Source: Chloroflexota bacterium
GTDB taxonomy: Bacteria > Chloroflexota > Limnocylindria > Limnocylindrales > CSP1-4
Direction of reading: 5' to 3'
DNA length: 64,000 bases
Assembly: GCA_003141955.1 (NCBI GenBank)
Contig: PLOC01000033.1
Span: 1 to 64,000 of the forward strand
Made by a program: the position numbers and the translations under genes. Numbering within the stretch: the stretch's first letter is position 1; every line of letters begins with the position of its first letter. Below the pieces are notes generated by a model that was not told where the DNA came from, ran no database searches, and saw nothing but the letters and a program-made list of their open reading frames with translations. Shown piece by piece: positions 7,210-40,086 of the stretch.

Positions 7210-7375
7210 CTTGTGATGCGACGCTCACCCGCGGCTTACCTGGAGTCGCCAGCAATTCGGCTGTGCGGGCCGGCTCGAACGTTCGAGGACTCCCGAGAGC
7301 GCGTCGGGCGGCGAGCCCTCGAGCCGTCGCCCGCCGACGACTCCCTCGGCCCTTCCTCCGTGCTAACCTACGGCC

Positions 7376-7486
7376 AACCTTTGGCCGGTCCTGTGAGGCC
7401 GGCGGACCGGTCCGGAGAGGCCGGGAAGGAGGTCCATGGTCGCCTGCGACGAGAACCACCGAGCCAGTTCGGCCGGTGGCCTTTTT
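7376..7486 (+). promoter_or_regulatory. PyrR-type pyrimidine attenuator leader of carA
   Basis: Two GGTC-CNGNGA-GGCC hairpins (7387-7400 CTGTGA; 7409-7422 CGGAGA) and terminator CCACCG-A-GCC-AGTTC-GGC-CGGTGG-CC-TTTTT (7456-7486). Confidence 0.8.
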
Positions 7487-7582
7487 GTCGGTGCGGCCCG
7501 CCGGTCCGGGGCCTCCGGTCGCGTCGCCGTCGGCCGGGGCGCCGCCAACCATTTCGATGCCGGGCGTCGAGGTGCCGCGTGA
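7436..7582 (+). CDS. candidate carA leader peptide (48 aa) overlapping the attenuator terminator
   Basis: AAGGAGG-TCC-ATG; MVACDENHRASSAGGLFVGAARR...; TGA overlaps carA GTG start; first 18 codons conserved at the carB leader. Confidence 0.5.
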   Translation: MVACDENHRASSAGGLFVGAARRSGASGRVAVGRGAANHFDAGRRGAA

Positions 7583-11856: not shown

Positions 11857-12365
11857 TGCCGGCACAGGATGTGCTCGTTGCAGCACAGGCCATTCAGAAA
11901 GACATCTCGGATCTGTTGGGACCCCCCGCCGAAGGCCTGCCAGCGCCAAGTCAGAGCGTGGTGCCCCAGTCCATCGTTAGGGGCACGCGCGGGTACATCG
12001 AAAGCGTGGCCAACCAGGCCAATGGGGCCTACGCGAGCGGCTGGTATGACGCTTGTGGCGTTATGGTGAGGCGGCTTGTTGAGACGCTCATCATCGAAGC
12101 GTTCGAGTGCCACGGACTTGCCACCAAGATCACGAATGCAGGCGGGGACTTCTTTTACCTAGGCGACCTGATAGATGCCTGCCTTGGGGAGAAGACGTGG
12201 AATCTCAGCCGCAACTGCAAGTCGGCTATGCGAAAGCTCAAGGATCTGGGCGACAAGTCGGCGCACAGCCGCCGGTTCGTCGCACACAAGGGAGATCTGG
12301 AGCCCCGGCTTGGGGACATCCGTGTCGTCGTGCAGGAGTTGGTCTATCTCGCAGGCCTGAAGTAG
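11853..12365 (+). CDS. DUF4145/HEPN-like protein, coupled to the upstream gene
   Basis: WYDACGVMVRRLVETLIIEAFE...FYLGDLIDACL...AMRKLKDLGDKSAHSRRF; 4-nt overlap with the DUF5343-like ORF. Confidence 0.6.
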   Translation: MMPAQDVLVAAQAIQKDISDLLGPPAEGLPAPSQSVVPQSIVRGTRGYIESVANQANGAYASGWYDACGVMVRRLVETLIIEAFECHGLATKITNAGGDFFYLGDLIDACLGEKTWNLSRNCKSAMRKLKDLGDKSAHSRRFVAHKGDLEPRLGDIRVVVQELVYLAGLK

Positions 12366-12411
12366 GAGCTTGACGTTCGAGCGGCGCCCACCTTGCTGCT
12401 ATCCTTCGCTC

Positions 12412-12524
12412 AACCTTTGCGGCCGGTCCTGTGAGGCCGGCGTACCGGTCCAGTGAGGCCGGGAAGGAGGTCCATGGTCGCCTGCAATGAGAACCACCGC
12501 GCCGACTCGGCCGGTGGCCTTTTT
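12412..12524 (+). promoter_or_regulatory. PyrR-type pyrimidine attenuator leader of carB
   Basis: GGTC-CTGTGA-GGCC (12425-12438), GGTC-CAGTGA-GGCC (12447-12460), terminator CCACCG-C-GCC-GACTC-GGC-CGGTGG-CC-TTTTT (12494-12524). Confidence 0.8.
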
Positions 12525-12530
12525 GTGTGA
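12474..12530 (+). CDS. candidate carB leader peptide, 18 aa MVACNENHRADSAGGLFV
   Basis: AAGGAGG-TCC-ATG; near-identical to the carA leader peptide; TGA overlaps the GTG at 12527. Confidence 0.5.
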   Translation: MVACNENHRADSAGGLFV

Positions 12531-15500
12531 GGCAGTCGCCGTTGCCCGCACCAACCATGCCCGTGCCCGCCAACCCGGCGCCGCGCGCTGAGCGGCCCAA
12601 GCCGAAGAGCGCGCTGATCATCGGCTCCGGGCCAGTCGTCATCGGCCAGGCGGCCGAGTTCGACTATGCGGGCACACAGGCCTGCCGCGCGCTCCGCGCT
12701 GAGGGCGTTCGCACGATCCTGGTGAACTCGAACCCGGCCACGATCATGACCGACGCCGAGGTGGCGGACGCGGTCTACCTCGAGCCGCTCACCGTTGAAG
12801 CCATCGAGCAGGTCATCGCCAAAGAGCGGCCGGAGGGGCTGCTCGCCGGACTCGGCGGCCAGACCGGCCTGAACCTGGCCGTGGCGCTGGCCAGGGCCGG
12901 CGTCCTGGACCGCTACAACGTCCGGCTGATCGGCACGCCGCTGGAAGCGATCGAGATGGCCGAGGACCGCGAGCTGTTCCGCGACCTGCTCGACCGGATC
13001 GGCCAGCCGTACGCGCCGAGCTGGATCGTGGAGGGCGAGACGGAAGAGGCGCGCGACGCGGCGGCTCACGAGGCGCTCACGAAGATCGGCCTGCCGGCGA
13101 TCATCCGGCCCGCCTTCACCCTTGGCGGCACCGGCGGCGGCATCGTCGAGACCGAGGCGGCGTACTGGGAGCGGACCCGGACCGGCCTGCGCCTCAGCCC
13201 CATCCACCAGGTCATGATCGAGCGCTGCCTGGTGGGCTGGCAGGAGATCGAGTACGAGGTCATGCGCGACGCGGACGACACCTGCATCGCCGTCTGCTCG
13301 ATGGAGAACGTCGACCCGCTCGGCATCCACACCGGCGACTCGATCGTGGTCGCGCCGGTCCAGACGCTCCCGGATCCCGTCCACCAGCGCCTCCGCTCTG
13401 CCAGCCTCGCGATCATCCGGGCGCTGGGAGTCGAGGGCGGCTGCAACGTTCAGTTCGCGCTCTCGCCCGACTACGCCGACTACGCGGTCATCGAGGTCAA
13501 CCCGCGCGTCAGCAGATCCTCCGCGCTCGCGTCGAAGGCGACCGGCTATCCCATCGCGCGCGTGGCGGCCCAGATCGCCGCGGGCCGGCGGCTGGCGGAG
13601 ATCCCGAACGTCGTGACGGGGACCACCGTGGCGGCCTTCGAGCCGGCGCTCGACTACGTCGTCGTCAAGCTCCCGCGCTTCCCGTTCGACAAGTTCCCCA
13701 CGGCCGACCGAACGCTGGGCAGCCAGATGAAGGCGACCGGGGAGGTCATGGCGATCGACCGAACCTTCGGCTCGGCGCTGAACAAGGCGCTGCGGGCGCT
13801 CGAACAGGCGGGCGCGGGCTGGCTGGCCGAGAACGCCGGCTGGCAGGCGACGCTCGACTACCTGATGGAGCCGGCGGTCGCGGAGCCGGCTTTTGTCACG
13901 GTCGATACCAGCGGTCTGGTGTGCGAGGCGAGGGCTCACGCCGAGCGGATGGCATATCCGATAGTGCTCAAGCGCTTCCTGGCACCCTCGGACTCGCGGC
14001 TGTGGCGGATCCTCGCCCTTCTGCGGCGGGGCATGCCGGCGGAGCGGATCCGCGGCGTCACGGGCATCTCCGCCTGGTTCCTGTGGGAGTTCGAGCGGGC
14101 GATCGCGCTGGAGCGCGAGGTGCGCAGGTACGGGGCGCGGATCGCGGAGCCACGGGACGATGAGGCGGCCACTCTCCTGGCGACCGTAAAGCGCGCCGGC
14201 TTCGGAGATCGCGAGCTCGCGCAGATGGCGGGGCCCGGCGTGACGGCAGAGGCGATCCGGCTGGCCCGCATGGAGCTGGGCCTGGTGCCGGGCTACGCGA
14301 TGGTGGACACGTGTGCGGCGGAGTTCGCCGCGGAGACGCCCTATTTCTACGCCACGTACGCCGCGGCGGGCTCCGAGCCGGAACTGCCGCCGGTGGAGCG
14401 GCCAGCGGCGCTGGTGATCGGCTCCGGCCCGGTGCGGATCGGGCAGGGGATCGAGTTCGACTACTGCGCCGTCCAGGCCGCGGCCGAGCTCCGCGAACAG
14501 GGCTGGCAGGCGGTCATGATCAACTCGAACCCGGAGACGGTCTCGACCGACTTCGACGCCAGCTCGCGCCTGTATTTCGAGCCGCTCGACTCGGAGAGCG
14601 TGCGTTCGGTCGTGGAGGCCGAATCGCCGGACGGCCGACCGATGCTCGGCGCCTTCGTCCAGTTCGGCGGCCAGACTCCGCTCAACCTGGCCGAGTCCCT
14701 CGCCGCGGCCGGCATCCCGCTGCTCGGCGCGAACCTGGAGACGATCGACCAGGCGGAGGACCGCATTCGCTTCGCCAACCTGGTCGAGGCGGTCGGCATC
14801 CCGCAGCCCGAAGGCGGCATGGCCCGCTCGATCGAGGAGGCGCTCGCGCTGGCCGACCGCATCGGCTACCCGGTCATCGTTCGACCGTCGTTCGTCATCG
14901 GCGGCCTCGCCATCGACTTTTCGTACTCGCCGTCCGATCTGGTCGAGCAGCTGGCCCGTGCGACCGTCGTCGACCCCGATCGGCCGGTTCGGATCGACCG
15001 CTATCTCGAAGGGGTCGAGGTGGACGTGGACGCGATCTCCGACGGCGAGACGGTCCTGATCCCGGGCCTGCTCGAGCACGTCGAGCGGGCCGGCGTCCAT
15101 TCGGGCGACTCGGTCGGGATGTTCCCGCCGCAGACGGTTTCGGTCTCCGACCAGGAGCTGATCGTCGCCGCGATGGATCGGATCGTTCGGGCGTTGGACG
15201 TCCACGGCCTCGTCAACGCTCAGTTCATCGTCCGTGACGACGGGGTGTATCTGATCGAAGTAAACCCGCGCGCCAGTCGCACGGTGCCGTTCATGAGCAA
15301 GGTGACCGGCGTGCCGATGGTCAAGCTGGCGGTCCGAATCGCTCTCGGCGAGACACTGCGCGAGATGGGGTGGGGGAACGGGCTCCTGGAGCCGCCGCCG
15401 CTGGTCGCCGTAAAGGCGCCGGCCTTCTCCACGGCCAAGCTGCGCGGCGTGGACCCATCCGTCGGGCCGGGGATGCAGTCCACCGGCGAGGTCATCGGCA

Positions 15501-32013: not shown

Positions 32014-33112
32014 CTACCGGCGATACGTCTTGCGGGCCATGCTGTCGGCCGCGGCGTTTCGGACCGACTTATGGAACCGCCGGTCCCTCTCGCGCCGCTG
32101 TGCGGTCGAAGGTTGTTTTGCCAGCTATGGGCGAGACTGCGGTAGCTCTTGAGCCGTCCTGGGTCGAGCCGGCCGTTGGCGACTGCCGTCCGCACCGCGC
32201 AGCCGGGCTCGAACTTGTGCGAGCAGTCGACGAAGCGGCAGCCGGCTGCGAGTTCGACGATCTCGGAAAGGTCTCGTCCACGCCTTCGTCCGCATCCCAC
32301 AGCCCGAACTCGCGCATGCCGGGCGTGTCGAGCACGAGTGCGCCATTCGCCAGAAGGAACAGCTCCCGATGAGTGGTGGTATGGCGGCCACGGGCGTCGT
32401 CCTCGCGAATCTCGCGCGTGGCCATCAACTCCTCGCCCGCGAGCCGGTTGAGGAGGGTCGACTTGCCGACGCCGGACGATCCGACAAGAGTCAGTGTCTT
32501 GCCCGGGGCAAACCACCGGCCTACCGACTCGATGCCCTCGCCGCTGCGCGCACTTATGGCAACGACGGCCACTCGCAACTCGGCCTCGAGCCGCGCCGCC
32601 GAGTCGTCCGCGGCCTCTACGAGATCCGCCTTGGTCAGCAGCACGACCGGCTCCGCGCCCGATTCATGTCCCATCGCCACGTACCGTTCGAGACGGCGCG
32701 GGTTGAGCTCGCCATTGAGGGAAGTGGCGACGAACAGCGTGTCGACGTTGGCGGCAACGACCTGGGCGCCCACTCGCGACCCGGCCGCCCGCCGCATGAA
32801 CGCGGAGCGACGGGGCAGCACGCTATCGATACGGGCCTCGCCGTCGTGCGGGGAGCGCACGCACGCCACCCAATCTCCAACGGCCGGGACCTCGCCGTCG
32901 CCCGCCTCGTGGCGGAATCGACCGGTCAGCGACGCAGACCGCTCGCCCAGCTCCGAGGCGAGCAGCCATAGGCCACGATGCTGGGCGATGACGCGCGCGG
33001 GCCAGCTGCCTTCGCCGTCCGAGCGGGCGAGGGTACCAAACGCGGCGGCCCAGCTGGGGTTCCAGCCCCAGGCCCCCAGGCCGCCAGTCTCGACGAGGTC
33101 GGGGCCCGTCAT
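32014..33112 (-). pseudogene. rsgA: ribosome-associated GTPase RsgA, interrupted by two apparent 1-nt deletions
   Basis: LVGSSGVGKSTLLNRL, DTPGMREFGLWD; then frame change near 32267-32271 to LSEIVELAAGCRFVDCSHKFEPGCAV, then near 32126 to LAKQPSTAQRRERDRRFHKSVRNAAADSMARKTYRR*. Confidence 0.85.
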
Positions 33113-33423
33113 CGGTCGGACTCCGGTGCCGGGTCGGCCAGCCGATCGTCGAGATGACGCTCGAATGACAGACAGACCGGAGTGAAGGAACGCAACCAGA
33201 AGCGCCGGGCGAGCAGGTTGGGCGTCTCGAAGTCGACCGCCATACGTTCGAACCCGGCTGAGCGCGCCCAGGCCACGATGACCGAGAGAAGCGCCCGGCC
33301 CACGCCGGAGCCTCGCGCCTCGGGAGCCGAAGCCCGCAGGTCCACGATCTCGACGGTGCTACGGCCGCCGGAGCAGGGGAGTGCCGCCGGCACTGTGCCG
33401 ACGGCTTCTGGATCGAAGTTCAT
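33109..33423 (-). CDS. GNAT acetyltransferase, N-terminally truncated
   Basis: VDLRASAPEARGSGVGRALLSVIVAWARSAGFERMAVDFETPNLLARRFW; ATGA overlap with rsgA; abuts a permease fragment. Confidence 0.7.
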   Translation of the reverse strand: MNFDPEAVGTVPAALPCSGGRSTVEIVDLRASAPEARGSGVGRALLSVIVAWARSAGFERMAVDFETPNLLARRFWLRSFTPVCLSFERHLDDRLADPAPESDR

Positions 33424-33424
33424 C

Positions 33425-33675
33425 TCAGCCCACCCTCTTCAGCTTTCCGGTTCGCTTGGCATAGCGCTCGGCCCGGCCGAAGCCCCACAACCCAAGCGGA
33501 ATGAAGACGAATGCCATGGCCACCAGCGGCCACAAGTCCGGCAGCAGCTGGTCCACCGACGCGCCGTCGATTAGTGCCCTGCGAACGGCGTCCAGGACGT
33601 AGGTGGCGGGCGACATGCGAGACAGCAGCTGCATCCAGCCGGGCAGGATGTCCGTCGAGTAGTACACGCCGGTGG
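33425..33675 (-). pseudogene. ABC-2 permease 3'-end fragment, copy 1
   Basis: TGVYYSTDILPGWMQLLSRMSPATYVLDAVRRALIDG...FIPLGLWGFGRAERYAKRTGKLKRVG*. Confidence 0.85.
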
Positions 33676-33731
33676 CGGATAGGGGGCTCAACTCCCCGTT
33701 CCGTAGTCGCCGACTGGCGGGTGCGCGGTCG

Positions 33732-34673
33732 TCAGATCGGGAAGCTCGTCAGCTCAGTCCATGAGGCCCCGCCGTCATCTGTCCTTGCGACCACCGAGGA
33801 CGCGCCATCGCTGAGGATCGCAAAGCCTGTCTGCGGCGTCACCAAGTCGGCTGCCGCGACGGAGGACGAGGCGCTCGTATCAGCCGCCTTCACTGGACCC
33901 CACGTTCGTCCGGCATCTGATGTCGTATAGAGCCGATCGTTCGTCCAGAGCCAACCGTGGCCGTCGGCCGTCATTGAGATGCCCAGCAGCTCACCCTCAG
34001 ACGGCAAGGCCCCTGTCGCGCTGGCCCCGCCAACAGACGACATCAGATCCAGTGAAGAGCCCTCCCAGTTGGATTGCCAGATTGCCCGAGTGGTCTCTGA
34101 GGGCGTGGCCCCGCCGCACGCGGTCCAGCTCTCGTCGGGCGACGGAAAGTCAATCGCGACCGTCGGCCCAACGCACGCAGTCGATGTCTGCGCCCACGTC
34201 GCGCCGGCATCGTCTGTTACCCAGAGGGTCGTTCCGTTTGGCGGTGGTGTCATCACGAAGCCCCGCTTCTCATCCACAAGCCCAGGGTGAACGAGCCTTG
34301 GGACTTCGGGCAGGTCGGTGAAACTCCCACCGCTGTTGGTGCTGATCCACACGCAGTCCGGCCCGGTCGCCTTCGGGCAGTCGGCTGTGACGAGGACGGT
34401 GGTGCCCTTGGCCGCCACGCCGTTCAGCGGAGGCATGTTCAGCACGCGGCTCGTCCACGTTCGACCGTCGTCGGCCGTCGTCGCGATTGCCCCGCGGGTC
34501 CGATCGCTCGTGCTCGACCCGACCACGATTACGTGCTGCGCGTCGAGGGCAGCCAGAGCCGACGGAAGGATGTGCACGGGCGGGGTTTGGCTGCTGGTCG
34601 GGGCGGATATCGTCGAGTTGCCGCAGCCCGCGAGAATCACTGCCAGCACGAATGGCCAGATTAGTCGGAGCAC
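33732..34673 (-). CDS. BNR/YCF48-like repeat lipoprotein
   Basis: Lipobox VLAVILAGCGNS; repeated DDGRTWTS, TNSGGSFTDL, TDDAGATWAQT, TSDAGRTWGPV, TDDGGASWTEL motifs; GTG start with GGGGGAGG upstream. Confidence 0.82.
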   Translation of the reverse strand: MLRLIWPFVLAVILAGCGNSTISAPTSSQTPPVHILPSALAALDAQHVIVVGSSTSDRTRGAIATTADDGRTWTSRVLNMPPLNGVAAKGTTVLVTADCPKATGPDCVWISTNSGGSFTDLPEVPRLVHPGLVDEKRGFVMTPPPNGTTLWVTDDAGATWAQTSTACVGPTVAIDFPSPDESWTACGGATPSETTRAIWQSNWEGSSLDLMSSVGGASATGALPSEGELLGISMTADGHGWLWTNDRLYTTSDAGRTWGPVKAADTSASSSVAAADLVTPQTGFAILSDGASSVVARTDDGGASWTELTSFPI

Positions 34674-34806
34674 TCGAACACCTCCCCCACGTAGTATCTG
34701 TTGAGACGTGTCCAAGGCCCGAACGGTTCCCCCGATGCGTGTCCAGATCACGCGATGCCCCGGACACGATTCTACCCGCGGGGGCGCCCACGGCCAAGGC
34801 AGGGGC

Positions 34807-35050
34807 CTACCCGACCCTTTTGAGCTTCCCTGTCCTCTTCGCATATCGCTCGGCCCGGCCGAACCCCGACAGCCCGACCGGGATGAAGAAGCAGGCCATT
34901 GCGACCAGGATGGCCACCTCGCCCCAGTCAGGTCCGGTTCCGTCGATCAGAGCCGACCGCACGCCGCGCAGGACGTGGGTCGCGGGCGAGAGCTCGCTGA
35001 TGTAACGAAGTGGACCAAGCGTGGACGGAAGTGGTGCGTATACCCCGGTG
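34807..35050 (-). pseudogene. ABC-2 permease 3'-end fragment, copy 2
   Basis: TGVYAPLPSTLGPLRYISELSPATHVLRGVRSALIDGTGPDWGEVAILVAMACFFIPVGLSGFGRAERYAKRTGKLKRVG*. Confidence 0.88.
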
Positions 35051-35415
35051 GCCGGCCGCCCCGCTGACTTGCGGTGCCGTTACATTGGCCCCGGGTGCTC
35101 TCGGGCGCGATAGAGGCGAATCCATGCCGGCGCGACCAACCACGCCTCGACGGCGAGAGCCGCGACGTTAACCGCCACGACTGCGGCAAGAGTTGGCTGT
35201 TCGGACGGAAAATGCCCGAATGGGGCGAGCGCGACGACCCCGACCGGCCCGAGATTGGCGAAAGCGATACAGACCAAACACCACCACGCCTGGGCCAGAC
35301 CGGCTGGCTCGCGGCTACCGCTGTGGCTTCTCTTCCACGGTTTGAGTGAGGCGATGACTCGAGGCCAAAAAGGCACACCCGTCCGATCGGTCCGCTCCCC
35401 GGCGGACACAGCGCC

Positions 35416-35691
35416 TTGCCCGCCCTGGCCACCGTCACCGATGTTCTTGCCGATCGTGGCTATCGAGGCTTGACCAAGGCCGCCGGCATGCATCACGCCC
35501 GAGTCCAGATCAAAGCTCCTGCACCCGGTCAGAGCGGGTTCGAGCCGATTGCCCCGCTCTACAAGGTCGAGCACGCGTTTGCCCAGCTCGGGCGCTGGCG
35601 ACGGCTGTCGCGTTGTTTCGAGCAAACGCAGATGAGCGCCGAGGCATGGCTCCAGATCGCGGCGTTCGGGTATCTGCTCGGACGAGTCTGA
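35416..35691 (+). mobile_element. C-terminal remnant of an IS5/IS4-like DDE transposase
   Basis: PALATVTDVLADRGYRGLTKAAGMHHARVQIKAP...YKVEHAFAQLGRWRRLSRCFEQTQMSAEAWLQIAAFGYLLGRV*. Confidence 0.8.
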
Positions 35692-35724
35692 ACGCCAAAG
35701 CGAAGGATTGATGACGGCCAGACG

Positions 35725-36117
35725 CTACGGCGGGCTGCTCTGCCCAGGGCACTTCCCCTGCGAGCACTGCACCTGCTGGACCGTGTCACCGGTGTACCCG
35801 TCGATGACAGCTCGGCTGCCGATCGGCTGACTCAGGGTTACGAGCAACTCCTCGCTCGTCCCTACGCCTGCCTCTGGCTGTGGCCAGGGAAAGATGAACG
35901 AGCCGACACTCACGATGACCCGATCAGAGGTCTCGGTGACGCCGGTGATGCGGGTCCATTGGGGAGAACTCGCATCGACCTCGACGCCGATCGTCCGGTC
36001 GTTGATGACGCGATAACCCTCGATGGGCTGTGACCGGTCGAGCCAGCGACCGACCAGGATTAGCCCGACAAGGATCGCGAGAACGACCCAGAGCCGCCTC
36101 GACTTCAGACGCTTCAC
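35725..36117 (-). CDS. hypothetical single-TM protein
   Basis: VKRLKSRRLWVVLAILVGLILVGRWLDRSQPIEGYRVINDRTIGVEVDASSPQWTRITGVTETSDRVIVSV...; GTG with GGGGGG upstream. Confidence 0.6.
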   Translation of the reverse strand: MKRLKSRRLWVVLAILVGLILVGRWLDRSQPIEGYRVINDRTIGVEVDASSPQWTRITGVTETSDRVIVSVGSFIFPWPQPEAGVGTSEELLVTLSQPIGSRAVIDGYTGDTVQQVQCSQGKCPGQSSPP

Positions 36118-36307
36118 CTGGACCCCCCTAACCTGCGCGACTGCGATCAACTCTTGATACGCACCAGGCAACCGGTCGGATCTCGGCCAATCCACGAGCG
36201 TAGTTGGGTTCGCGCCGATAGTTCGTATACAGGCTCTCACTCTACGCTGAACTCCGCCCTGGCTGCCAGCGGCTCGCTCAACCCAGTCCAGTCGGCGGAG
36301 CAGGGGA

Positions 36308-36551
36308 TCAGCCGACCCTTCTGAGCTTCCCGGTCTGCTTTGCATAGTGTTCGGCCCGGCCGAAGCCCCACAGCCCAACAGGGATGAAGAAGCGCGCCAT
36401 AACGACCAGGATCGCGACCGCGCCCCAGTCTGGCCCGGTCCCGTCAATCAGCTCCGACCGAACTCCACGCAGGACGTAGGTCGCCGGCGATAGCTCGCTG
36501 ATGTAACGGAAAGGACCAATCGAGGATGGAAGTGGTGCGTATACCCCGGTG
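36308..36551 (-). pseudogene. ABC-2 permease 3'-end fragment, copy 3
   Basis: TGVYAPLPSSIGPFRYISELSPATYVLRGVRSELIDGTGPDWGAVAILVVMARFFIPVGLWGFGRAEHYAKQTGKLRRVG*. Confidence 0.88.
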
Positions 36552-36789
36552 CTCGGGAGACTCCGCCAGTTTGCCAGGTGCCTGAGTCACGAGACCTAAG
36601 CCGGCCAGGTGAATGACGATGTGATGCCCGGATCGGGCTATATACGAAGGGCCGATCGTGCCAGAGCATTCTTGTTGAGTTCCGGCGGCCGGTGGCAACC
36701 ACCGGCGGCGGGGTCAATGCCAGACCCCGAGAGCCGACGCCTCTGCCAAGTGATTCTCCGCCCGGCAGGAGCGTGGAGGGTATGGTCGG

Positions 36790-37638
36790 ATGTCGAAGAG
36801 AACGATCGCGCTGGCATTGCTCATCGGCGGTGCGTGGCTGGTTGCTGCCGTGCCGAGGCCGGTCGCCGCTGACGGCCCATTCCCGATGACCTGCACCTTC
36901 TCTGACAGTGCCAAGAGCACCAAGCCACTGGTCGTGACTGTCAAGCTGTCGTGTTCTGGCACCAACGAATACGGCTCCACGGTCGACGCGTCGTTGATCG
37001 GCCCGGCGACGGTCGACTTCTACTCGGGAACGAACCTTAGCTGGACCACAGCCGTTCAGGTCCCGGTTGCCGGCGTTTACCAACTGAGCATCACTGCGAC
37101 CGCCAGATACTCAGACGGATCTTCAAGCAGCGGCACCTATGTCTGTTGCTCGGTCCAGGCATACCCAGCGGACGCCGCCACACCGACTCCCCAACCGACT
37201 CCGCCTGCGACTCCACCGCCGGCGTCTACGCCGGCCCCGCCTGCGCCCACGCCGAAACCAAAGCCGGCCCCGCCTGCGCCCACGCCGAAACCAAAGCCGG
37301 CCCCGGCCGCGACTCCGGCACCGACCGCCACCCCTGCCGAGACGGCGACACCGAGCCCTTCGCCAACCGACACCCCGCAGCCCACGCCAGCGGTAGGGAG
37401 CGCGCCTCCGAGCGCGGCACCATCACCCTCCGCGGAGTTGGCGCCGAGCCCGTCGGCCTCGCCGTCGAGTTCTCCCACGCCGGCTCCTGCCAGCACCGGG
37501 GGGACCCAGGACCCGTCGAGCGTTAGTCCTTATCTCGTGGCAGGGGCAGTTGCCGCGATCCTTGCGGTGCTCGTTCTGCTGCTTCTACTCGGTCTGGTGA
37601 AGTGGCGGCGCAGGCGCCGAGATGGTCTGCCCGGGTAG
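36790..37638 (+). CDS. secreted, membrane-anchored protein with Pro/Ser-rich stalk and C-terminal TM
   Basis: Signal peptide MSKRTIALALLIGGAWLVAAVPRPVAADG; (PAPPAPTPKPK)n stalk; VAGAVAAILAVLVLLLLLGLVKWRRRRRDGLPG*. Confidence 0.8.
   Translation: MSKRTIALALLIGGAWLVAAVPRPVAADGPFPMTCTFSDSAKSTKPLVVTVKLSCSGTNEYGSTVDASLIGPATVDFYSGTNLSWTTAVQVPVAGVYQLSITATARYSDGSSSSGTYVCCSVQAYPADAATPTPQPTPPATPPPASTPAPPAPTPKPKPAPPAPTPKPKPAPAATPAPTATPAETATPSPSPTDTPQPTPAVGSAPPSAAPSPSAELAPSPSASPSSSPTPAPASTGGTQDPSSVSPYLVAGAVAAILAVLVLLLLLGLVKWRRRRRDGLPG
37231..37296 (+). repeat. exact 33-bp tandem repeat x2 in the Pro-rich stalk
   Basis: CCGGCCCCGCCTGCGCCCACGCCGAAACCAAAG at 37231-37263 and 37264-37296. Confidence 0.9.
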
Positions 37639-37751
37639 AACGAGCCGGTGGAGTAAGGCAACCAAGTATCCAGACCGGCTGACCGCCATGGCCTCAGCTC
37701 TTGTGGGGCCGCCGACTTCGGCTTTCGTCGAGTCGGCCTCAGGGACAATCA

Positions 37752-37966
37752 GCCGGGGTAGCGCTTGCGAGCGATACGCTCGGCGGAGGCATTGCGAACC
37801 GCTTTGCCGAACTGCCGGTCCGTCTCCCGACGCGCCGCGGGTGTCGGCTGGTCGGCCAGTTCGCGGGCCAGGCGGCGATAGGCTTTGAGACGCGCCTGAT
37901 CGAGCCTTCCACTCGCCACAGCTGTCTGGACAGCGCAGCCGGGCTCGAACTTGTGAGACCAGTCGG
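37752..37966 (-). pseudogene. rsgA 3'-end fragment
   Basis: DWSHKFEPGCAVQTAVASGRLDQARLKAYRRLARELADQPTPAARRETDRQFGKAVRNASAERIARKRYPG* aligns by eye to the repaired C-terminus of the 32-33 kb rsgA. Confidence 0.82.
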
Positions 37967-37970
37967 CGTG

Positions 37971-38075
37971 CTGCTGCTTCTACTCGGCCTGGTGAAGAGG
38001 CGGCGCGGGCGCCGAGATCGTCTGCCCGGGCAGAACGGGCCAGCGGAGTAGGCCACCAAGTATTCCAGACCGGGT
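37971..38075 (+). repeat. second copy of the 36790-37638 gene 3' end (matches 37576-37678)
   Basis: CTGCTGCTTCTACTCGG[T/C]CTGGTGAAG...CGAGAT.GTCTGCCCGGG.AGAACG.GCC...ACCAAGTAT.CCAGACCGG in both. Confidence 0.85.
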
Positions 38076-38156
38076 AGGCCGCCTTCGTCCGCGCGATGGC
38101 GCAGTCGCCCGGTTGGAGAGGCGAAGGCCTCGCCGTTGGCTCCGACAACGAGCCAC

Positions 38157-38951
38157 TCATCCGACCCTCTTCAACTTGCCGGTCCGCTTGGCGTAGCGTT
38201 CGGCGCGGCCGAACCCCCACAGCCCAACTGGGATGAAGAAGCAGGCCATCACGACCAGGATGGCCACCTCGGCCCAATCGGGCCCGCTGCCGTCGATCAA
38301 TGCCGACCGCACGCCACGAAGGACGTAGGTCGCGGGCGATAGCTCGCTGATGTAACGGAGCGGACCAATCGAGGACGGAAGTGGTGCGTATACCCCGCTG
38401 ATCAGCAGCAGGCACGACTGCATGACGAAGACCATCTGCGAGCCGCGCTCGACAGACATCATGGGCAGGATCGCGGCCAGCATGCCGATGCCGATCAGGC
38501 TGGCGGAGCCGACGACCATGAAGACTGCGGCCGCACCCAGGTTGGCGTGTCCGAGATCCAGTGAGAAGAAAAGTACGAGGACGATGAGCAGGATCGCGGT
38601 GTGGATCAGGCCGTACACCACGGCGTACAGGGCGGACCCGAGCAGCTGCACGGAGCGCCGGACCGGCGCCATCATCGTGTACTCGAGCGTGCCCTCCCAG
38701 CGCTCCCAGGTGATCGTGTCGCCGATCGACTGGAAGACCACGGACAGGTAGTTCCAGAAGACGGCGCCGACCACGAGCGACATGAGCAGACGGCGGCTGC
38801 CGACCGACTGGCCGATCAGCGAGACCGACAGCGCGCCCGCTACGGCGTAGACGAGGAATGCGACCTCCCAGCCCCAGTAACGTTTGGTGAGGTTGAAGTT
38901 GCGCTCGACGAAGGCGTAGCTCGCCAGCGCCTCGCGCCTGATTGCAGTCAA
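38157..38951 (-). CDS. ABC-2 type transporter permease (full-length copy)
   Basis: ALASYAFVERNFNLTKRYWGWEVAFLVYAVAGALSVSLIG..., C-terminus shared with three fragments; TTG 38951 chosen over the 39011 start. Confidence 0.85.
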   Translation of the reverse strand: MTAIRREALASYAFVERNFNLTKRYWGWEVAFLVYAVAGALSVSLIGQSVGSRRLLMSLVVGAVFWNYLSVVFQSIGDTITWERWEGTLEYTMMAPVRRSVQLLGSALYAVVYGLIHTAILLIVLVLFFSLDLGHANLGAAAVFMVVGSASLIGIGMLAAILPMMSVERGSQMVFVMQSCLLLISGVYAPLPSSIGPLRYISELSPATYVLRGVRSALIDGSGPDWAEVAILVVMACFFIPVGLWGFGRAERYAKRTGKLKRVG

Positions 38952-39204: not shown

Positions 39205-40086
39205 CTACTCGACCTGTCCGGCTTCGCCCTCCTCGATGTCGTCGTCGAGGGAGCGGCCGGTGTATTGCATGAAGGCGCTCTCGAGCGTGGGCGGAAGCCC
39301 GTGTTCGAAGGCGACCCGTGTCTTGAGGCGTTCGGGCGTTTCCTCGGCCGTCAGTCGCCCGCCGGCCAGGATCCCGATTCGGCCGCACAGCCGATCCGCC
39401 TCCGCGAGGTCGTGCGTGGTCAGCACGATCGTGGCGTCGTGATCGGCCCGAAGCTCTTCGATGAAGGCCTGGACGTCGAGCTTCGAGCGCGGGTCGAGCC
39501 CGGTCGTGGGCTCGTCCAGCAGCAGCAGCGTGGGGCTCGTCAGGATGGCCCTGGCGATCGCCACCTTCTGCTGCATGCCCCGGCTCATCTGCTCGACCGG
39601 CCGGCCCATTCGCTTCTCGCCGATCCCGAGCCGAGCCATGATCTCGGCTGCCTTGCGGCGGGCTTCGCCCGCGTCGAGGCCGTAGAGTCGGGCCGCGAAC
39701 GAGAGGTTCTCGGCCGGCGAGAGCTTCTTGAAAAAGGCGGCGTCGACGCTGACCCGGTTGATCAGCCGCTTGACCGCCATCTCGTCTCGGGCCAGGTCGT
39801 GGCCGAAGACCTCGACGCGACCTGCGTCGAGGGTCAGCAGGCCGCTGACCAGGCGAATGAACGTGGACTTGCCGCTTCCGTTCGCCCCGAGCAGGCCGTA
39901 GATCTCGCCCCGCTCGATGCGGATCGAGACGTCATCCACGGCCATGACCGGCGGCTTGCGCCGATCGACCTTGAACCCTTTGGTAGCGTGCTCGACCAGC
40001 AGGGCGGCCGGGCCGGCCCGGAACTCTTTGGCGATGGGCCGGCCCGAGGCCGGCGATTGAGTTGTTTCCAGAACCGCGATGCTCAT
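39205..40086 (-). CDS. ABC transporter ATP-binding protein (exporter type)
   Basis: Walker A GLLGANGSGKSTFIRL, signature MSRGMQQKVAIARAILTSPTLLLLDEPTTGLDP. Confidence 0.95.
   Translation of the reverse strand: MSIAVLETTQSPASGRPIAKEFRAGPAALLVEHATKGFKVDRRKPPVMAVDDVSIRIERGEIYGLLGANGSGKSTFIRLVSGLLTLDAGRVEVFGHDLARDEMAVKRLINRVSVDAAFFKKLSPAENLSFAARLYGLDAGEARRKAAEIMARLGIGEKRMGRPVEQMSRGMQQKVAIARAILTSPTLLLLDEPTTGLDPRSKLDVQAFIEELRADHDATIVLTTHDLAEADRLCGRIGILAGGRLTAEETPERLKTRVAFEHGLPPTLESAFMQYTGRSLDDDIEEGEAGQVE

What the first reader, a model, noticed from the sequence alone, without database searches (positions are those of the whole stretch)
33425..38400. Four copies of an ABC-2 permease 3' end, three of them cut at the same point
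Seen: the C-terminal roughly 80 codons (S/T-G-V-Y ... GKLKRVG-stop) occur on the minus strand at 33425-33675, 34807-35050, 36308-36551 and within the complete gene at 38157-38951. All four keep the stop codon. The three partial copies lose homology to the permease at the same place: immediately after GTGCGTATACCCCGGTG in copies 2 and 3 and GTAGTACACGCCGGTGG in copy 1 (full gene: GTGCGTATACCCCGCTGATC). Different genes sit between the copies. Inference: repeated recombination at a fixed site, or a silent-cassette arrangement in which partial copies could convert the exporter's C-terminus. Divergence between copies argues against simple misassembly.
Basis: partly seen in the sequence, partly recalled or inferred. 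Interest (0 to 1): 0.75.

Follow-up and report, generated by a model that had tools for sequence, protein, structure and literature searches.

The report
Gene cassettes swapping a transporter's tail
In a group of uncultured Chloroflexota from a fen, small gene cassettes have repeatedly been inserted at one exact base position inside a transporter gene, each bringing a replacement for the gene's last 80 codons and pushing the old ending aside, so the locus behaves like an integron-style gene-capture array but has no recognisable integron parts.

Summary
Four copies of the ABC-2 permease 3' end exist, only here in this genome, and the three partial ones are cut at one point, CA[C/G]^CGG. Relatives explain it. 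Twelve genus-mates carry one permease with a 'resident' 3' end. In the window and in G003 the full gene instead has an 'element' 3' end (~60% identical), and the resident end lies displaced downstream (copy 1 here). Five species carry such arrays. Across them 13 junctions join eight unrelated cargo ends to a permease 3' end at the same place. The same cargo (bnr, surf) meets an element end in one species and a resident end in another, with identity falling from 85-93% to ~40% at the crossover. Cassettes are reordered between species; one is 96.5% identical where host genes are ~83-87%. Orphan ends are under purifying selection (dN/dS ~0.13). Best reading: recurrent site-specific insertion of small cassettes whose attachment site is the permease's C-terminal coding end, plus homologous exchange. 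It resembles an integron array or CIME accretion, but no integron integrase, attC-type site or linked recombinase was found. The recombinase is unidentified; that is the main gap.

The parts
38157..38951 (-). Full-length ABC-2 permease gene, chimeric: resident 5' part (38400-38951) and element-type 3' end (38157-38399)
   Evidence: Pfam ABC2_membrane 1.3e-14; 5' and 3' trees disagree
38388..38400 (-). Crossover site in the gene (CAG^CGGGGTATAC), gene-side junction (attL-like)
36308..36551 (-). Orphan 3' end c3, element type, crossover CAC^CGGGGTATAC at its 5' edge; cargo on its 5' side is surf
34807..35050 (-). Orphan 3' end c2, element type; cargo on its 5' side is the memb gene
33425..33674 (-). 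Orphan 3' end c1, resident type: the gene's original 3' end, displaced; cargo on its 5' side is bnr (attR-like junction CCAC^CGGCGTGTAC)
33732..34664 (-). Cargo bnr: lipoprotein-like protein with sortilin/BNR-type repeats; same cassette in G010
35080..35370 (-). Cargo memb: 5'-truncated small membrane protein gene, complete in its own cassette in G018
35725..36120 (-). Cargo orfB: small membrane-anchored protein; 98.5% aa identical in G018
36790..37638 (+). Cargo surf: proline-rich surface-type protein with C-terminal membrane anchor; also in G014 and G018 arrays
37748..38155 (.). Remnants inside the first cassette: rsgA pieces (37748-37968 and 38073-38155) and a duplicated surf 3' end (37967-38083)
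39205..40086 (-). ATPase of the ABC transporter, upstream partner of the permease
   Evidence: ABC_tran 4.6e-32
32069..33112 (-). rsgA, the gene that follows the permease directly in species without an array

Best explanation
The permease gene is the insertion platform of a mobile cassette array. A cassette is [permease 3' end, 80 codons + stop][one or a few cargo genes]. Site-specific recombination at CA^CGG, about codon 183 of the permease, inserts a cassette: the gene keeps its 5' part and receives the cassette's 3' end, so a full-length protein is restored with a new C-terminal loop and last membrane segment, and the previous 3' end is pushed downstream behind the cargo. Repetition gives tandem orphan 3' ends, with the resident one farthest from the gene. 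Homologous recombination between the ~250-bp repeats further shuffles, fuses and transfers cassettes between co-occurring species. Shown: chimeric gene, displaced resident end, one crossover point with many cargos, partner switching, sharing and reordering of cassettes, purifying selection. Inferred: a recombinase acting in trans, a circular intermediate, and expression of same-strand cargo from the transporter operon.
For: Twelve genus-mates have a single permease with a resident 3' end, followed directly by rsgA in eleven. In G000 and G003 the full gene has an element end, while resident ends c1 and cA sit displaced and group with relatives' gene ends. 13 junctions with 8 unrelated cargo ends at one point. 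Partner switching: bnr left 93% / right 42%, surf left 85% / right 38%, c1 vs G003 cA left 20% / right 95%. Cassettes shared in different order; orfB 96.5% nt identical over 944 bp against ~83-87% for host genes. dN/dS ~0.13 among orphan ends, as expected if each once served as the gene's end.
Against: No recombinase is encoded in the cassettes or the window, and none tracks array presence. Cargo sides of the junction share only CCAC, less than known recombinases usually need. The orfB junction in G018 lies in the repeat tail, so at least one transfer used homologous recombination. G010's cassette sits at another locus through a different junction.
Confidence: 0.75

Rival explanations
1. Decayed tandem integrative elements (CIME-type accretion): ordinary integrase-bearing elements integrated one after another into the permease gene, each restoring the 3' end, then lost all but their ends and a few genes. 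This shares the insertion step with the best explanation but makes the small cassettes relics, not mobile units.
For: Tandem accretion at gene 3' ends with decay is well described (PMC5704250). Cargo such as IS remnants and broken genes shows decay.
Against: No integrase, relaxase or phage gene in any of the five arrays, and no parent element with this 3' end in viral contigs, GTDB genomes or genus genomes. Single-gene units recur intact in other orders and one moved recently. Decayed relics of one element type should share their attP-side arm; these share 4 bases.
Confidence: 0.3
2. Homologous recombination only: one ancient truncated 3' end became a repeat, and transformation plus recombination between repeats built and shuffled the arrays. 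The common breakpoint is inherited, not re-made.
For: Repeats of ~250 bp allow it; G018's mosaic 3' end and the orfB transfer boundary inside the repeat tail show that it occurs.
Against: Resident and element ends are ~60% identical with almost no shared stretch at the crossover, yet bnr and surf cargo switch between them exactly there, and resident ends c1, G003 cA, G014 and G018 cB abut four different cargos there.
Confidence: 0.15
3. Assembly or binning artefact.
For: All genomes are MAGs, at least four from one fen survey, and the locus is repetitive.
Against: Repeats are only ~85% identical, too different to confuse short reads; the same junctions recur in contigs from different samples and dates with the same conserved flanks.
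Confidence: 0.03

Closest known systems
Integron gene-cassette arrays, including CALIN (attC clusters lacking an integrase)
   Same: Tandem single- or few-gene cassettes, each with a copy of a recombination site; exact crossover at one edge of the site and variable sequence on the other side; cassette order differs between species.
   Different: The site is a 243-bp functional coding end of a transporter gene, not a structured attC; no GTTRRRY core; no integron integrase over the cut-off; one host gene is rebuilt at each insertion.
Tandem accretion of ICEs/IMEs and CIMEs at gene 3' ends (also SCC-type insertion at a gene end, own knowledge)
   Same: Insertion at one point near the 3' end of a host gene with an element-borne replacement 3' end; the old end is displaced; further insertions stack at the same site.
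   Different: Units of ~1-2 kb with cargo only; no integrase or transfer genes; no parent element found; reassorted as single cassettes.
Silent-cassette antigenic variation by gene conversion
   Same: One complete gene with partial alternative copies alongside, and a C-terminus that changes.
   Different: Replacement is by insertion with displacement; unrelated genes sit between the copies; only one mosaic end was seen.

Membership tests
Integron / CALIN | Integron integrase (IntI, TIGR02249) in the genome | tested here: not met
   No match over the cut-off in 21 genus genomes; best ~80 bits, mostly Xer-like, against a cut-off of 265. CALIN do not need a neighbouring integrase.
Integron / CALIN | attC site: RYYYAAC/GTTRRRY cores and an imperfect hairpin | tested here: not met
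   Crossover reads CCAC^CGG[GC]GT[AG]TA; no consistent hairpin beside it or in the 3' end.
Integron / CALIN | Tandem exchangeable cassettes with one crossover point | tested here: met
CIME / tandem accretion at a gene 3' end | attL- and attR-like junctions, with the target gene's 3' end restored by the element | tested here: met
   Chimeric full gene and displaced resident end.
CIME / tandem accretion at a gene 3' end | Derives from an ICE/IME: parent element or integrase with the same site specificity | tested here: not met
   No parent element in the arrays, genus genomes, GTDB contigs or viral contigs; integrases in the genomes cannot be assigned. Absence in incomplete MAGs is weak evidence.
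Silent-cassette gene conversion | Expressed copy changes by one-way conversion from silent copies | tested here: inconclusive
   One mosaic 3' end in G018, donor unclear; G000 and G003 fit insertion instead.

The most novel reading that the evidence does not exclude
An integron-independent gene-cassette system: a trans-acting recombinase inserts single-gene cassettes at one point of a host ABC exporter gene, using the exporter's own C-terminal coding sequence as the mobile attachment site, so that each capture event also replaces the exporter's last outer loop and membrane segment.
Probability: 0.4. Interest if true: 0.85.

Novelty: new variant of a known kind. Interest (0 to 1): 0.68.

Why it matters
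Integrons are the standard example of a bacterial platform that captures and shuffles single genes. A second platform that reuses a functional gene end as its attachment site, keeps that end under selection, and couples gene capture to exchange of a transporter domain would show that cassette systems can arise from ordinary gene-end integration. It would also give a concrete case for asking how cassettes without an integrase move. The predictions are testable: circular cassette junctions, and strain variation confined to the same base position.

Tried and rejected
Viral contigs searched with the element-type 3' end: none. GTDB contigs: only the same fen species plus one weak unrelated hit. Exact core-site pattern across the genus: outside the arrays only matches within unrelated sequence. 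Hairpins next to the crossover or in the 3' end (attC-like): no consistent signal, z-scores scatter around 0. Clustering about 70 tyrosine recombinases to find a family confined to array-bearing genomes: one G000/G003-only pair and one G000/G014-only pair, not informative. Serine recombinases: widespread, no match to array presence. A resemblance of GGTGCGTATAC to a Xer arm of dif (own knowledge) was dropped because resident ends lack it. Other genera of the family: no clear tandem orphan ends. Literature searches found no description of such an array; the library holds open-licence papers only.

Full report
OBSERVATION. Four copies of the last ~80 codons of an ABC-2 permease lie on the minus strand at 33425-33674 (c1), 34807-35050 (c2), 36308-36551 (c3) and inside the full gene at 38157-38951. 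A whole-genome search finds only these four. c2, c3 and the full gene are 83-86% identical, c1 much less. All partial copies start at the same place, CA[C/G]CGG on the coding strand, and all keep frame and stop codon.

RELATIVES. Among 20 genus-mates, twelve have a single permease copy behind its ATPase. rsgA follows directly in all of these but G006, and downstream genes (ybhB-like, SRPBCC, response regulator, kinase) are syntenic where the contigs reach. This is the unoccupied locus. Five species (G000 = window, G003, G010, G014, G018) carry tandem orphan 3' ends; G019 has only decayed remnants. Across 107 genomes of the family no other genus clearly shows this. The named contigs are Chloroflexi MAGs from fen samples of different dates.

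CHIMERA AND DISPLACEMENT. The 3' ends fall into two types about 60% identical: resident (YYSTDILPGWMQLLSR...) and element (APLPSSIGPLRYISELS...). In the window and in G003 the full gene has an ordinary genus-type 5' part (89% nt to each other, 82-88% to genus-mates) but an element-type 3' end. The resident-type end is found as c1, with one base between its stop and the next start codon, and as cA in G003, three bases from rsgA. In trees the 5' parts follow the genus. The element ends form one clade (support 98/98), and c1 and cA pair together inside a clade with the nearest relatives' gene ends (96/81). So c1 is the gene's original end, displaced by insertions.

ONE CROSSOVER, MANY CARGOS. Thirteen junctions with eight different cargo ends meet a permease 3' end at the CGG: bnr, memb, surf, a G003 lipoprotein, an AadA-like nucleotidyltransferase, an S51 peptidase, the orfB cassette of G018 and a SUFU-domain protein (domains). 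Ten of them read CCAC on the cargo side; otherwise these ends are unrelated (20-40% identity, the random range). The sharpest evidence is partner switching. The bnr cargo end is 93% identical between window and G010 up to the crossover and 42% beyond it, because it meets a resident end in one and an element end in the other. surf does the same between window and G018 (85%, then 38%). Conversely c1 and G003 cA differ completely on the left (20%) and are 95% identical on the right. Homologous recombination has no reason to switch exactly at the edge of dissimilar sequences; site-specific recombination does.

CASSETTES MOVE. bnr (window, G010), orfB and memb (window, G018), surf (window, G014, G018) and the S51 peptidase (G003, G014) recur with different neighbours. 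orfB DNA is 96.5% identical over 944 bp between window and G018, whose shared permease locus is ~83-87% identical, so it moved recently. In the window the orfB and memb cassettes are fused by a deletion, and the first cassette holds pieces of rsgA and a duplicated surf end. Homologous exchange also acts: G018's full gene is resident-type for ~190 bp and then switches to the tail that belongs to the orfB cassette. In G010 the bnr cassette lies beside tRNA-Gln, and its outer 3' end is joined at another base to a dispersed repeat, so it got there by another route.

SELECTION. Element ends, orphans alone included, differ mainly at silent sites (mean dN/dS 0.13) and carry no stops. This fits the model in which each orphan was once the working end of the gene; it does not prove that orphans are used now.

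MECHANISM. Shown: precise recombination at one point, restoration of the gene by a cassette-borne end, displacement of the old end, repeated use. Inferred: a recombinase acting in trans, probably a circular cassette, and read-through expression of same-strand cargo (bnr, orfB, memb) from the transporter operon. From general ABC-2 topology (own knowledge) the replaced part would be the last outer loop and final membrane segment. No recombinase is encoded in the cassettes, and no tyrosine recombinase was found in the window contig. Tyrosine and serine recombinases are common in the genus but none tracks array presence clearly; incomplete MAGs limit this test.

COMPARISON. It works like an integron array but fails two defining tests: no IntI over the cut-off and no attC consensus or structure. 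It has the geometry of tandem accretion and CIMEs at a gene 3' end (PMC5704250), but the units are single-gene cassettes and no parent element was found. I file it as a new variant of a known kind: gene-end integration turned into a cassette array.

Noticed in passing
L037:11623-11711 and 12031-12143; copies in L191-L210: A ~100-bp G+C-rich repeat (GGCCCCCGACGCAGCCGCTCG..CTGGCCGG..GGGATCGTCGGC..AGCGGAGCGGGGGC..GCTTATC..GGCTTA) is dispersed in many copies through nearly all genus genomes; two copies flank a ~95-codon ORF beside tRNA-Gln in G010. Nature unknown.
   Followed up: partly
G018:C68, C103, C48; G010:C69; G000:C57; G004:C166; G012:C60, C21; G008:C6: A ~325-aa tyrosine recombinase recurs within about 2-9 kb of a ~500-600-aa serine recombinase in many species, suggesting an element with both recombinase types.
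   Followed up: no
window 33109-33423: The small GNAT gene after copy 1 starts with what looks like the first ~20 codons of rsgA, so another gene piece seems inserted near the rsgA start; the window's rsgA also looks frameshifted near its C-terminus.
   Followed up: partly
window 7361-7488 and 12397-12526: A 130-bp leader, 88% identical, stands before both carA and carB; probably a pyrimidine-type regulatory leader, but no Rfam family reached its threshold.
   Followed up: partly
window 35440-35690; L036:7015-7200: C-terminal remnant of an IS5-type transposase inside the orfB cassette, shared between window and G018.
   Followed up: no
L035:6878-8011 and 12365-12598; L042:149-2724: rsgA is itself duplicated or replaced within arrays: G003 has an intact copy upstream and a remnant at the old place, and G014 has two partial copies.
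   Followed up: partly
L021 (G026), permease 3' end: A permease of another genus has an 'AP...'-like C-terminus on a long branch next to the element clade, a possible source of the element type.
   Followed up: no
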